A stretch of DNA of 64,000 nucleotides, taken from NCBI GenBank assembly GCA_026419775.2, contig JAOPGA020001330.1:1-64000 (forward strand), in the 5' to 3' direction. Origin of the DNA: Acrasis kona (Eukaryota; Heterolobosea; Eutetramitea; Acrasida; Acrasidae). Made by a program: the position numbers and the translations under genes. The notes under the pieces were generated by a model. The model had not been told where the DNA came from. It did not search any database and saw only the letters and a program-made list of their open reading frames with translations. This document shows positions 2,916-29,537 of this stretch, piece by piece (position 1 is the first letter of the stretch; every line of letters starts with the position of its first letter).

Positions 2916-4041
2916 ATGAAGTCTGAAGGTTTACTCATATTTTAGAAACCAGCAATAATCAGGCCGAAAGAGTTGCCGCTGAGAGGATGTTTGTTGAACG
3001 ATTAGATTAGATTCTCATTTTTCCAGATACATGCAGGATGAAAAAAAGCAGTTTGAGGACAAAAAAGAGGCGGATCTCAAAGATATCGAGAGCAAAAGAA
3101 ACCATGTAGAACAACTCATCAAGCAAGTAAATGCCACCCTTGTGGACAAGAACAAAATTACTCTTAATGTAGGTGGAGATTGTTTACCACCACAACAGCA
3201 ACCATCACCTCACAAGAAAATAGCTTCTTTTCTGCAATGTTTAGCGGAATGTTTAGCGTTGAGCCTGAGCAGGATGGTACTTATTTTATAGATAGAGAAC
3301 CAGGGGATTTTGGAATTATACTAGAGCGCCTGCGCGGGCAGGACGTTAAAAAGGTGGTACAATCATTAGATGGCGAGCGCCGAGTTAGACTTTTAAACGA
3401 TGTGAGGTTCTACTGCTTAGAAGGAGCATTCCAAACGTATCTCCCAGAGTTGGGCATCCTTAGAGAAGTGGATGTGCATAATGCGAGAGCCCTGCATGGA
3501 GATGATGATTTGGTTGCAAATTATCCCAACGGCTCAAAATATGAACTCTTATGCACGACTAGTCAAATTTGTATTTTGGACTCTTTCAACGCATGCGAGG
3601 CAGACCAGGTGTGGAGTGAGGAGGAACTATCAAGCACGACTGGCATTCCTATCCGTGATATTCAAAGACAAATGACACCACTTTGTTCGTGTCATCATTA
3701 AAGACGAAAATGGTTTTTGTTGGAATGAAGAATTTAAGCATGCCAGCACTCGCCTCAGGATAGCCGCCATCTCCACTAAGGAAACCACGCAACAGGTACA
3801 TCAAACTGANAGTAAAATAGAGATGGACAGAAAGCCCATTATAGAAGCGGCCATTGTGAAGATCATGAAGAGTAGGAAGACCATGTACGATGATCAGCTC
3901 ATTGAAAGTGTTGTGGCTATTCTGCGACCAACTTTTGTTCCATCTCCTATTGAAATTAAAAAGAGAGTTGAAAGTTTGGTTGAGAGGGAGTTTTTAGAAA
4001 GAGACGAAAAGGAACAAAGTTTGTTTAGATACTTGGCTTAA
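2916..4041 (+). pseudogene. KCTD-type BTB domain fused to a cullin C-terminal region (two frame breaks)
   Basis: Exons are inferred from a 38-nt intron (2989-3026) and, less surely, a 17-nt one (2929-2945). The product starts with a Lys/Glu coiled coil and enters a T1/BTB fold (ITLNVGGD, SFFSAMFSG, GTYFIDREPGDF). At 3180 the frame shifts inside the conserved VGG..FTTT motif, as if one base were lost. After the BTB, from about 3535, cullin sequence begins: KYELLCTTSQICILDSFNA, TTGIPIRDIQRQ. It shifts frame again near 3685 and ends at 4041 with a full neddylation domain (EAAIVKIMKSRKTM, IKKRVESLVEREFLERD, RYLA). BTB proteins are normally separate adaptors of cullin-3, so one chain carrying both is unusual. 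An N at 3810 shows imperfect sequence here, so the breaks could be assembly errors. Confidence 0.6.
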
Positions 4042-23490: not shown

Positions 23491-26139
23491 TCATGTGTAC
23501 TTCGATACTTGTTTAGTAGAACCAGATCCTCCCAGGAGCTTTGCAATGTCTCCAAAAGCAGATGCTCTCATGCCAACTGGCCTTAGCTCTGCAGCGCCGC
23601 ATTTTGCTCTTCTTTCAGCAATTTCCATTGGTGTCTCTCCGTTTCCATCTCTCTTCTTTTTGTCACACCCCAAATCCATCAACTTGAGGACAGCGTTACG
23701 ATGACCGTTAACAGAGGCCCAATGCAAAGGAGTCCGATTCCACTTATCAACAACATCAAGAACATCAGTTTTGGTTTTGACCTTGTGTGACTTGTCTTGA
23801 GACCACTTCGAATATATCCAATCAAATACTTTGCCAGGTGCATCCGCACGTGCTGCATGATGTGCAATGGTCTGTTGATTATCGTCTTTAATAAAGAGGG
23901 ATGTTTTATAATTCAAAAAAAGATTCAACACCTCAACAGGTCCCTTCTGAGATGCAAGATGAATGGGTGTTACTCCGCCAGGATCGCGCGAGGAAGTAGA
24001 TGCACCCTTGCTTAGTAGATATTCTACGATTTCTACCATACTATTAGCGCAGGCAACATGAAGTAAGGACATGCTTTGTTTTGAATTTTTATTGTAAGGA
24101 TCATTCAGATCTATGTAATTATTCTCAGTCATGAAGCGTAGCACTGGCAAGTTGTTTTTGTTAACAGCAGCGTGAGCTAATGCCCCGAATGGATTCATTA
24201 CTTCTGGTTCGTATGAAGCACTTTCCACGGTACTACCACCGAAACATGCATCAGGAAATGAATCACTAATGTGACGAGAGAATTCAAAAAGCATAGGTCT
24301 TTTCATCAACTCAGCTGGCGATAATACACCCAAAAGCTCACCAAACTCGCCATCCTCTTTCTGCTTGTCAAGGACGTTTGACAGGATGCGACAAGCTCTA
24401 AGTGCTGCAAGCGAGTCACCACCGAGTTCGAAGAAGTTACTTTTAGAAGAGAGATTATTACTGTTAAGACCTAACGCTTTTATCCAGGAATCTTTGACGA
24501 GAGCTTGTATTTCTGTCTGCTCCTCTAATTCATCTTCAAGGGGGACTTCGGGTAGAGATTGCTTTGACAACAGTGTCCTTGAAATCTTTCCAGAAGAGGT
24601 TGTCGGAAATTCATCAATAATCAAGAACCGAGTAGGAATCATGTAGGTTGGCAGATATTTATCACATAGCAACTTTAACAAATCAACCAGAATTGTAGAA
24701 TTTGATTCCAACAAATCTGCTGGTTTACACCATGCCACAAGCATATTGGAATGAATACTAGTAATAACACTGGAAAGAAGTGGACTGGAAATTTTCAAAA
24801 TTACATTCTCAATTTCACCAAGTTCAACTCTTTTGCCTCTAATTTTTACTTGATCATCTCTGCGTCCCAATAAAACCCATTCGCCCTTTTCGTATTTGAC
24901 AATATCGCCTGTTCTAAATACACGACCCAGAGTTTCGTGTTTTATAAACTTTTCCGCAGTCAACTCGAATAGACCAAGGTATCCGTCACCTACTTGGTTG
25001 CCAGAAATCCAGAGTTCGCCCTTGTCACCCTCTGTGCTATTGTTTGTAATGGTAGAAATGGTGTTTAGTTGGTCTTTGGGGATTTGTAACTGAACCACGT
25101 GTAGTTCACAGCCCCCAAGTGCTCGACCTAAATTTTTGTAAGAATCTTTCGTAACAACGGAGTATGCTTGGTAGACACAGCATTCGGTAACACCATACGT
25201 ATTGATGAGTTTCACTTTATCGCACCACTTCTGTGCAATGCTTTGTGTCATTGGTTCACCTCCGAGAGCGACAACTTTTAAACAGGGAACAGAATTTACG
25301 TCGGATATGGTAGAGAACAAGGAAGGAGTAGTTAGTAGGTGAGTGGCACCACTTTTCACAAGACAAGTTTTTAACGCGCCGAAAATTAGATTTTTAGGAG
25401 AAAGGGCAATTGTACCTCCAGCACAAAGGGTTGAAAAGAAATCACCTAAAGACGGATCAAAAGTATGAGGTGACGCCACAAAGCATGTGGATGTCGAATT
25501 TATTTCGTGGGCTTTATTTTTTGCAAGGCAGTACTGCATCAAACAATCATGTGGGACTATACATCCTTTGGGTTTGCCGGTGCTGCCAGAAGTATAGAAT
25601 ATGTGTGAAATGTAGTTGATGTCATACTGTAAAGTCTTCTTTTTTTTGTACTGCCTCAAGAGATCTTGCGAGAACACTATAATCACTTTGGGGCATTGTG
25701 AGTTTTTAATAATGAGTTGCTTTTGTTTTTCATCCTTTACTATAATTATAGATGGTTTGGCATCACCTAGAATGTGTACAAATCTTGGGTCTGTCAAGTC
25801 CACCGGTACAATAGTATATCCTGCTGCAATTACGGATAACTCAATAATTGGTAGGTCTTGACCTTCATCAACTGCTATCGCGATGTTTGTTGAAGTTGGG
25901 TGTGATGTTAGATCGATTAGGTTGTGTGAACAATTCTCAACATTTTCCCATAATTCAGAGTACGAAAGCGTATCAGTAGTGTTGTTTTCGTTTTCATTCA
26001 AACATATCAAGGCCTCAGCGTTTGGTTGTTTTTCACAAATACTCCTAATGATCCGAACAATGTTTGTTGTTGTTGTAATCATTTTTATCAACTTGTTCAA
26101 CCATACACACACCGAACCGCAAACATCAAACATAACCAA
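23491..26139 (-). CDS. adenylation-carrier protein with C-terminal ankyrin repeats
   Basis: Up to 882 residues; translation may start at M20 (26082). An ANL-superfamily adenylation domain covers about 25-525: core A3 SGSTGKPKG (about 183), GELWISGNQVGDGY, A8 RGKRVELGEIEN, and A10 with the catalytic Lys in SSGKISR (about 515). A phosphopantetheine carrier domain follows, with LGGDSLAALR (Ser near 574). Residues about 645-870 form roughly five ankyrin repeats (SLLHVACANSMVEIVEYLL, TPIHLASQKG, TPLHWASVNGH). There is no condensation, reductase or thioesterase domain. It would activate an amino or carboxylic acid and load it on its own carrier arm; the ankyrin tail presumably docks a partner or acceptor. 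AASDH-like enzymes share A-T but have a different tail. Confidence 0.85.
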   Translation of the reverse strand: MVMFDVCGSVCVWLNKLIKMITTTTNIVRIIRSICEKQPNAEALICLNENENNTTDTLSYSELWENVENCSHNLIDLTSHPTSTNIAIAVDEGQDLPIIELSVIAAGYTIVPVDLTDPRFVHILGDAKPSIIIVKDEKQKQLIIKNSQCPKVIIVFSQDLLRQYKKKKTLQYDINYISHIFYTSGSTGKPKGCIVPHDCLMQYCLAKNKAHEINSTSTCFVASPHTFDPSLGDFFSTLCAGGTIALSPKNLIFGALKTCLVKSGATHLLTTPSLFSTISDVNSVPCLKVVALGGEPMTQSIAQKWCDKVKLINTYGVTECCVYQAYSVVTKDSYKNLGRALGGCELHVVQLQIPKDQLNTISTITNNSTEGDKGELWISGNQVGDGYLGLFELTAEKFIKHETLGRVFRTGDIVKYEKGEWVLLGRRDDQVKIRGKRVELGEIENVILKISSPLLSSVITSIHSNMLVAWCKPADLLESNSTILVDLLKLLCDKYLPTYMIPTRFLIIDEFPTTSSGKISRTLLSKQSLPEVPLEDELEEQTEIQALVKDSWIKALGLNSNNLSSKSNFFELGGDSLAALRACRILSNVLDKQKEDGEFGELLGVLSPAELMKRPMLFEFSRHISDSFPDACFGGSTVESASYEPEVMNPFGALAHAAVNKNNLPVLRFMTENNYIDLNDPYNKNSKQSMSLLHVACANSMVEIVEYLLSKGASTSSRDPGGVTPIHLASQKGPVEVLNLFLNYKTSLFIKDDNQQTIAHHAARADAPGKVFDWIYSKWSQDKSHKVKTKTDVLDVVDKWNRTPLHWASVNGHRNAVLKLMDLGCDKKKRDGNGETPMEIAERRAKCGAAELRPVGMRASAFGDIAKLLGGSGSTKQVSKYT

Positions 26140-28474: not shown

Positions 28475-28721
28475 AATTTTAGTGACCACCGATATCGCGA
28501 TATGGGCAATCACCCATATATCAGTGATATTAACACACAAGCGGGTGCCGCCGCAGGCTTTAGTGGAGGACACTAAGTGGCAGGGAAGTAATTTGGGTGT
28601 GGAGTCTTTTCATTTTTGTTGTTCTGCAGCCTCCTGGATTCTTTGTGCTCTAATCTTGTTGTTTTAACAGGTTTTACAATGAGGAAAGGTTAATCCACGA
28701 GTGACTTTTAAATGTCTGCGT

Positions 28722-29537
28722 ATGAATTTAACAATGAACTTGCCTGTTGACGTTATAAATCTGATTTTATGTCACGCCTCAGAAGAGCCACAAGACATTC
28801 TACTAGCATCTTTAGTGTCGAAAAACTGGTACGAAGCAGGTCAAAAAGAAAATCTATGGAGATTCATGTTCCAACGACATTTTCCCTCTTGTAAAACCAT
28901 AACCAAGAAATACAAAGATTCATACCGTGAGGTTTTTACCCATGTTGTGGAAAAGAATCGTGGGGAAGTATTAGACGCTCGGATAGTTTGTCACATCTAC
29001 CATTACGTAAATAAACATTAATAGATACACGTTGGAGACAATCACATTGGGAAGAAAGTCTTTTCAATGAGACATTCAGCTGGCATGTACATTGAAGAAC
29101 CTGATTTAGCAGTTGAGGGTGGATTTAGAAGTGTAAGAAGGATAAGAGGAGTTTTGATTGACTTGGTGATTCTACCTGATCACTTCTTTATGAAAGTGCC
29201 AGCTTCATTGTTAATGCTCTCTTATGCCGTTGATAAAAAGAGTTCTCTTGATTTTCTAACTAATTTTGTTTCTACACAAGTCGTGGACAACACATCTAAA
29301 GTCGTAGTCGGCTTGCGTCTGGATTTGAACAGAGAGGTTAGTTACGATGATGCCACACTTCTTGCAGAACAAATTTGCAGTCCACTTGTTGAAGTATCTT
29401 CAAAAACTGGAAGGAACTTTGATAGGGCCATTGATATGCTACACGCAACATCAATCTCCAATTCTGTTGACCAGGAATGGTTGAAGGATGTCGCAAAAGG
29501 TCGGTTCAGTTTCAAGAGGAGGTGTGTTTTGATGTAA
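28722..29537 (+). CDS. F-box protein fused to a degenerate Ras-like GTPase with CaaX
   Basis: Exons 28722-28985 and 29025-29537 with a 39-nt intron (28986-29024); 258 residues. Residues 4-55 are an F-box (MNLPVDVINLILCHASEEP, LVSKNWYEAGQKENLWR). After the splice a Ras/Rab-like domain begins (ARI-IHVGDNHIGKKVF). The P-loop has Lys where Ser/Thr should bind Mg. The switch-II D-T-A-G motif is lost (LILPDH). N-K-x-D is replaced by L-R-L-D in VVVGLRLDLNREV, while the SAK-like EVSSKTGRNF remains. The tail KRRCVLM is a farnesyl-type CaaX. An SCF adaptor tethered to membranes by a pseudo-GTPase module is the inferred role. Confidence 0.8.

What the first reader, a model, noticed from the sequence alone, without database searches (positions are those of the whole stretch)
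28722..29537. F-box fused to a pseudo-GTPase with a farnesylation box
After removing a 39-nt intron one protein carries an F-box, a Ras-like domain that has lost the Mg-binding Ser/Thr, the DTAG motif and N-K-x-D, and a C-terminal CVLM CaaX. I know of no characterised SCF adaptor built this way. It predicts a membrane-anchored ubiquitin ligase adaptor using a catalytically dead small GTPase as scaffold.
Basis: partly seen in the sequence, partly recalled or inferred. Interest (0 to 1): 0.75.

Follow-up and report, generated by a model that had tools for sequence, protein, structure and literature searches.

The report
F-box fused to decayed Ras domain
A social amoeba carries a family of at least 22 genes that join a protein-destruction adaptor (F-box) to a Ras-type molecular switch, usually with a membrane anchor, and the gene in this window is the member whose switch has decayed the most.

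Summary
Window 28722-28985 + 29025-29537, joined across a 39-nt intron, encodes 258 aa: F-box, Ras-fold domain, C-terminal CVLM. The P-loop Ser/Thr, switch-I Thr, DxxG and the N-K of NKxD are gone; its Asp and an SSK remain. AlphaFold2 gives a Ras fold.

It is not a one-off. The genome (almost certainly Acrasis kona) has at least 22 F-box-GTPase genes. In 15 the F-box and P-loop share one open frame; three full-length and one truncated public A. kona proteins show the fusion. Nineteen of 22 have Cys at -4. The window's intron position is shared by 5 paralogues. Motif loss is graded: 21 of 22 keep the P-loop (all but this one), 2 keep Gln61, 7 keep [NT]KxD.

Most likely: a prenylated, membrane-held SCF adaptor whose Ras-like domain binds partners without a GTP cycle. 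Function is inferred. No RNA evidence covers this splice, and its donor GTTTGT is atypical.

The idea is not new in kind: TbFRP of Euglenozoa joins FYVE, F-box and a Ras-like GTPase; F-box-ARF fusions, RhoBTB, Rab40 and FBXL2 are related designs. New are the expansion, the CaaX anchor and the dead GTPase.

The parts
28722..28985 (+). Exon 1: F-box and helical linker, 88 codons (start at 28722 or in-frame ATG 28734)
   Evidence: Open frame; Pfam F-box-like 2.8e-8; matches family pre-GTPase profile built without it, 35.3 bits
28737..28877 (+). F-box proper (residues 6-52)
   Evidence: PF12937 over cut-off
28986..29024 (+). Predicted 39-nt intron GTTTGT...TAATAG, phase 0, inside strand 1 of the Ras fold
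   Evidence: Same position as introns modelled in C87, C189, C569, C808, C632, that of C87 confirmed by public protein P0002; family introns 35-44 nt; donor atypical; no RNA evidence
29025..29537 (+). Exon 2: Ras-fold pseudo-GTPase domain, basic tail and CaaX, stop at 29535
   Evidence: PF00071 2.7e-9; AlphaFold2 pLDDT 80.1, pTM 0.75; Foldseek best E 2.0e-10, K-Ras
29034..29057 (+). Degenerate P-loop GDNHIGKK (Ser/Thr replaced by Lys)
   Evidence: Only 1 of 22 members without GK[ST]
29100..29120 (+). Degenerate switch I PDLAVEG (Ala at the Thr35 position)
29175..29186 (+). Position of DTAG, here PDHF
   Evidence: Alignment A3 columns; one search's alignment places the gap slightly differently (P----DHF)
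29310..29324 (+). G4 remnant GLRLD (Asp kept)
29397..29405 (+). G5-like SSK, kept
29523..29534 (+). C-terminal CVLM box
   Evidence: Sequence; Cys at -4 in 19 of 22 family models

Best explanation
The gene encodes a lipid-anchored F-box protein of an expanded F-box-GTPase family in Acrasis kona. Shown by computation: F-box, linker, Ras-fold domain and CVLM in one predicted spliced frame; homology of both halves to paralogues of the same architecture; loss of nearly all nucleotide-binding motifs in this copy. Inferred: the F-box binds Skp1 and hence a Cul1-type SCF ligase; CVLM is farnesylated and holds the protein at a membrane; the Ras-like domain, no longer able to bind Mg-GTP, serves as a fixed protein-binding face that brings partners (perhaps regulators or effectors of Ras/Rho) to the ligase. 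The ancestral form was probably a nucleotide-binding F-box-Ras protein; this copy is the end of a graded decay of the switch.
For: A frame kept open at 16-23% identity to the 8 paralogues of alignment A1 argues for selection.
Against: No RNA data. Donor GTTTGT against GTA in 15 of 16 other family introns placed by score (see observation check). In other GTPase loci 2 of 13 clear placements start GTT: GTTGGT in L098 (36 nt, 20-bit margin) and a doubtful 95-nt one in L093. The only database entry for this gene is the 156-aa second ORF. The single-sequence model of exon 1 is poor (pLDDT 54), so the F-box rests on sequence. C87, C230 and C896 end without Cys at -4 as modelled, C463 ends CLYT. [quoted passage not shown] No binding, ligase or lipid data for this family.
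Confidence: 0.55

Rival explanations
1. A decaying gene: a former F-box-Ras member whose splice donor and GTP site have been lost, now making only a 99-aa F-box peptide or nothing.
For: Longest end branch of 51 rows in the tree (2.29); atypical donor; only family member with a broken P-loop; the unspliced F-box ORF ends at 29021 and the GTPase ORF's first ATG (29067) lies after the P-loop. Copies that lack the second GTPase half in the stretch read exist (C233 at 67295, C72).
Against: Both exons open, CaaX in frame at the end, intron position and length as in paralogues, both halves still match the family profiles; at such divergence neutral drift should have broken the frame.
Confidence: 0.2
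2. The F-box marks the protein itself for rapid turnover, so the product is a short-lived membrane Ras look-alike rather than an adaptor for other substrates.
For: The authors of the TbFRP study suggest that its F-box may be coupled to rapid proteolysis of TbFRP itself (PMC3593210, section 21).
Against: Self-turnover does not explain an expanded family with conserved linker and diverged GTPase faces; no data for Acrasis.
Confidence: 0.1
3. The Ras-like domain still binds a nucleotide or another ligand in an altered way (as RhoBTB3 does with ATP) and the adaptor is switched by it.
For: Asp of G4 and SSK kept, GK of the P-loop kept; RhoBTB3 binds ATP through changes in G4 and G5 (PMC4931677 passages).
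Against: Mg-binding Ser/Thr, Thr35, DxxG and N-K all lost here.
Confidence: 0.08
4. Two neighbouring genes, an F-box peptide gene and a Ras-like gene, not one protein.
For: In-frame stops at 29019-29024 in genomic DNA.
Against: The GTPase frame has no ATG before its P-loop; strand 1 runs on across the junction as in paralogues; in 15 of 22 models F-box and P-loop lie in one open frame, and public proteins are fused.
Confidence: 0.05

Closest known systems
TbFRP (FYVE - F-box - Ras-like GTPase) of Trypanosoma brucei and other Euglenozoa
   Same: F-box before a Ras-superfamily GTPase in one chain, with its own membrane-targeting part, in Discoba, the wider group that holds Acrasis (PMC3593210: passages, sections 16 and 21; Discoba for Acrasis)
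   Different: Membrane targeting by FYVE and PI3P, C-terminus without CaaX; GTPase nearest to Rab18/Ypt6, not Ras or Rho; described as one protein and its orthologues; no orthologue found in Naegleria gruberi by its authors; the sections read do not call the GTPase inactive
F-box or BTB fused to ARF-family GTPases
   Same: F-box plus Ras-superfamily GTPase in one chain, reported as lineage-specific (PMC8358228, section 13)
   Different: ARF family; no Ras/Rho member or expanded family described in that section
RhoBTB family, above all RhoBTB3 (Cul3 adaptors)
   Same: Atypical small GTPase domain in one chain with a cullin-ring adaptor domain; RhoBTB3 has changed G4/G5 and ends in a CAAX (PMC4931677, passages)
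   Different: BTB domains after a Rho domain and Cul3, not an F-box before a Ras-type domain; RhoBTB3 still binds ATP
Rab40 (SOCS-box Rab, Cul5)
   Same: Small GTPase carrying its own ligase-recruiting box; ubiquitinates its effectors (PMC10509765, passages)
   Different: SOCS box at the C-terminal side, elongin B/C-Cul5, Rab18-derived
FBXL2 (prenylated F-box protein)
   Same: F-box protein whose C-terminal CaaX anchors an SCF ligase at membranes (PMC5627969, passages)
   Different: Geranylgeranylated; leucine-rich repeats (recalled) and no GTPase domain

Membership tests
F-box protein | F-box domain over curated cut-off | tested here: met
   PF12937 33.8 bits against 24.3
F-box protein | Binds Skp1 in an SCF complex | not testable with these tools
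   Skp1 and cullin genes are present in the genome
Ras superfamily (by descent) | Ras fold and profile match | tested here: met
   PF00071 37.3 bits over 21.6; predicted fold
Active small GTPase | P-loop GxxxxGK[ST], switch Thr, DxxG, [NT]KxD | tested here: not met
   All four absent; Asp of G4 and SSK remain
CaaX-prenylated protein | C-terminal CaaX | tested here: met
   CVLM is the last four residues; farnesyl preference of Met is recalled; the modification itself is not testable here
Acrasis F-box-GTPase family | F-box-linker-GTPase order, short introns, shared intron position, homologous linker | tested here: met
   the shared intron is predicted, not shown by RNA
FRP of Euglenozoa (TbFRP) | FYVE domain before the F-box | tested here: not met
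   No FYVE among the Pfam matches of either half; the F-box starts at residue 6
FRP of Euglenozoa (TbFRP) | Rab18-like GTPase domain | tested here: inconclusive
   FRP sequences were not compared; the window domain's place in the tree is unsure
RhoBTB | BTB domains after a Rho domain | tested here: not met
   No BTB among the Pfam matches of either half
Rab40 | C-terminal SOCS box | tested here: not met
   No SOCS box among the Pfam matches

The most novel reading that the evidence does not exclude
Acrasis runs a whole class of membrane-held Ras look-alikes wired to SCF. Twenty of 22 lack Gln61 and four keep a YDPTIED.YRK effector loop, so they may sit in one state, capture Ras effectors or regulators, and mark them for destruction. 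Members such as the window protein then shed nucleotide binding and became fixed-shape baits. Ras signalling would be tuned by ligase-coupled decoys.
Probability: 0.22. Interest if true: 0.82.

Novelty: new variant of a known kind. Interest (0 to 1): 0.57.

Why it matters
Small GTPases built into ubiquitin-ligase adaptors are known for Cul3 (RhoBTB) and Cul5 (Rab40), and one F-box-GTPase protein (TbFRP) is known from Euglenozoa. This would be a large, expanded F-box counterpart with a CaaX anchor in another branch of Discoba. One genome holds members from near-complete Ras motifs to a dead fold, a natural series for asking when a GTPase stops being a switch and becomes a scaffold. It also bears on how an aggregating amoeba might tune Ras signalling. 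The four public A. kona members that were found are named only H-RAS, rasC or hypothetical protein.

Tried and rejected
Other splice choices: 27 frame-keeping GT..AG pairs join the two ORFs. Those ending at 29024 with GTA donors (28968, 57 nt; 29007, 18 nt) do not give the strand-1 pattern that paralogues show before the P-loop, so 28986-29024 was preferred on homology, not on its donor. Of the five paralogue introns at this position, those of C189 and C87 came from scoring, C632's donor was my choice over one that scored 2.6 and 1.0 bits higher (same intron place to within four bases), and those of C569 and C808 were placed by eye.

A relative outside Acrasis was sought. The single-sequence search found only the gene's own second ORF. 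Two profile searches returned 68 proteins and the best 120 of 4312. A family F-box profile matched 4 of the 188 proteins held (E 1e-19 or better), all Acrasis kona, two of them (P0002, P0069) sequences that are also in that profile; every other E was above 0.7. A metagenome Ras protein with a suggestive N-terminus (P0167) was tested and rejected: no F-box. This does not show absence elsewhere: candidates must share short exact words, only the best 120 were listed, and itself missed P0069 although its sequence was in the query. Of the 15 members in the two profile queries, public proteins came back for 4.

Family F-boxes are weak for Pfam in part. Of 10 members scanned as proteins, 6 pass a cut-off (window gene, C156, C569, C808, C85, C230); C561, C422 (P0069) and C229 (P0070) fall below, C586 (P0071) gave no F-box match. 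In the genome scan PF12937 also passes at C849, C504 and C561. The rest are linked by the family profile or by searches with family exons.

C896 is not well modelled (a 120-nt gap) and is kept in the counts as modelled. The F-box first paired with C422 belongs to another gene; its own was found. Pairs with the F-box downstream (C591, C880, C675 at 61094, C685) or on the other strand (C918, C561 at 13690) were not counted. Of 122 further Ras loci, 60 were read upstream and 3 more; 59 were not.

The exon-1 model without relatives was poor and is not used. The Naegleria fowleri genome paper (PMC8296547; passages and section 6) cites an F-box review, a BTB review and a RhoBTB review among its small-GTPase references, so its supplement may describe such fusions in Naegleria; it could not be read. 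TbFRP was overlooked at first and found when checking the listing; it lowered my interest score and the odds of the best explanation and of the novel case, and added a rival.

Full report
What is there. The window lies in contig C675 (67,860 bp) of a 37.35-Mb, 1021-contig genome. A family member on contig C87 (20,649 bp) is the public protein 'H-RAS [Acrasis kona]' from a contig of the same length, and P0069, P0070 and P0071 are public A. kona proteins from contigs whose lengths match C422, C229 and C586, so the organism is almost certainly Acrasis kona, a heterolobosean in Discoba. The published assembly is given as 44.02 Mb, so the one held may be a part. Window 28722-28985 joined to 29025-29537 gives 258 aa without a stop: an F-box (PF12937 E 2.8e-8), a linker, a Ras-fold domain (PF00071 E 2.7e-9) and C-terminal CVLM.

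The Ras half. AlphaFold2 on exon 2 with 50 Ras relatives gave pLDDT 80.1 and pTM 0.75; Foldseek's best PDB hits are K-Ras structures (best E 2.0e-10; TM by query length 0.66-0.74 among the 50 rows shown). The P-loop is GDNHIGKK, switch I has Ala for Thr35, DTAG is PDHF and NKxD is GLRLD; SSK remains.

A family, not a one-off. Ras (150 rows listed of 158 matches) and F-box (150 rows) hits in the own genome were compared: 10 Ras loci had an F-box on the same strand within 1.5 kb upstream, against 0.45 expected by even scattering. Reading loci, scanning the upstream stretch of 60 of 122 further Ras loci (4 new members at E 2.2e-11 or better, all sense; best antisense E 0.23) and two searches with family F-box exons (then 50, 51) gave 22 gene models: window, C85, C230, C849, C156, C561, C504, C422, C189, C87, C569, C808, C586, C229, C463, C233, C713, C894, C279, C649, C896, C632. 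Partial or near copies are not counted: C952, C673, C233 at 67295 and C72 were read, C797 and C303 were seen only as search rows. In a tree of 51 rows (22 family, 22 other loci, 7 public proteins) C85, C230 and C849 fall in a group of 8 (96/92) with genes that I read as Rho-type from their motifs; nine others form a supported clade (99/92); the rest are unresolved, and the window gene's place (with C156, 80/44) is unsure because it has the longest branch. Two origins of the F-box-GTPase joining are likely; one is not excluded by the tree.

Gene structure. In 15 of 22 models the F-box and the P-loop lie in one open frame, so the fusion itself does not rest on splicing. Introns placed in the family are 35-44 nt (C896 set aside); among other GTPase loci 11 of 13 clear placements (of 26 made; two of the 13 are family loci) are 36-44 nt. 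The genome paper gives 9-95 bp (PMC11589745, passages and outline only). The window's intron falls between the same two residues before the P-loop as those modelled in C87, C189, C569, C808 and C632. The C87 junction is present in public protein P0002, which starts inside the F-box; P0069 and P0070 equal my C422 and C229 models from their first Met, and P0071 equals C586 with its 39-nt intron left in frame. The window donor GTTTGT is the weak point.

Decay of the switch. Of 22 models: GxxxxGK[ST] 21, Thr35 16, DxxG 12, Gln61 2, [NT]KxD 7, G4 Asp 21. Only the window gene lacks the P-loop Ser/Thr. Nine read ECKRD or ECKSD at G4. Four keep YDPTIED.YRK (C561, C422, C586, C229), which I recall as the Ras effector loop. 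Cys is fourth from the end in 19 of 22; the last residue is Met 7, Ser 4, Cys 3, Asn 2, Gln, Ala and Thr 1 each, never Leu or Phe, which by the recalled rule points to farnesyl. A linker pattern (W...W..KYP....NYK) and a KLxxGE stretch before the tail recur in many members.

How it may work. Skp1 (2 hits), cullin (16 hits, some being exons or copies) and prenyltransferase (5 hits in 3 contigs) domains are encoded. The simplest reading is a membrane-anchored SCF adaptor whose Ras-like face recruits partners. For relatives with effector loop and P-loop but no Gln61, a long-lived GTP state that captures Ras effectors is possible; for the window protein the face would be fixed. None of this has been tested.

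Compared with what is known. The nearest published protein is TbFRP of Trypanosoma brucei, with orthologues in Euglenozoa: FYVE, F-box and a Ras-like GTPase nearest to Rab18/Ypt6, recruited to PI3P membranes by FYVE, without a CaaX, rapidly cleaved; the role of its F-box is unclear, and its authors found no orthologue in Naegleria gruberi (PMC3593210: passages, sections 16 and 21). F-box-ARF fusions are mentioned in PMC8358228 (section 13). RhoBTB (PMC4931677 passages), Rab40 (PMC10509765 passages) and FBXL2 (PMC5627969 passages) cover the adaptor and anchor ideas. Literature searches: 24 papers, 20 listed; 0; 2; 0; 5. In the titles and abstract beginnings shown I saw no expanded F-box-Ras family and no F-box protein with a dead GTPase; most of those papers were not opened and subscription papers are not held. 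The A. kona paper's main text has no 'F-box'.

Noticed in passing
window 3168-4041 (+): A BTB_2 domain (PF02214 1e-7) and a C-terminal cullin piece (PF00888 2.9e-8) in one frame, followed by an overlapping frame with Cullin_Nedd8 (PF10557 7.4e-24): it looks like a BTB domain fused to the neddylated tail of a cullin; the rest of a cullin was not seen in these two frames.
   Followed up: partly
L029:20-1582 (C230) and L032 (C849): Triple fusion 2OG-Fe(II) oxygenase + F-box + Rho-type GTPase (oxygenase scanned on C230 only: PF03171 1.5e-9; C849 has a similar N-terminal sequence by eye).
   Followed up: partly
window 23491-26133 (-): One ORF with AMP-binding, PP-binding and ankyrin repeats, an unusual adenylation-carrier-ankyrin protein.
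   Followed up: no
G000:C675:64374-64478, just past the window end: Another F-box on the same contig.
   Followed up: no
public protein P0071 (rasC, C586): The public model keeps an in-frame 39-nt intron (13 extra residues) just before DTAG.
   Followed up: yes
window 28712-28750: A 12-codon ATG frame (MSAYEFNNELAC) overlaps the F-box start in another frame; possible upstream ORF.
   Followed up: no
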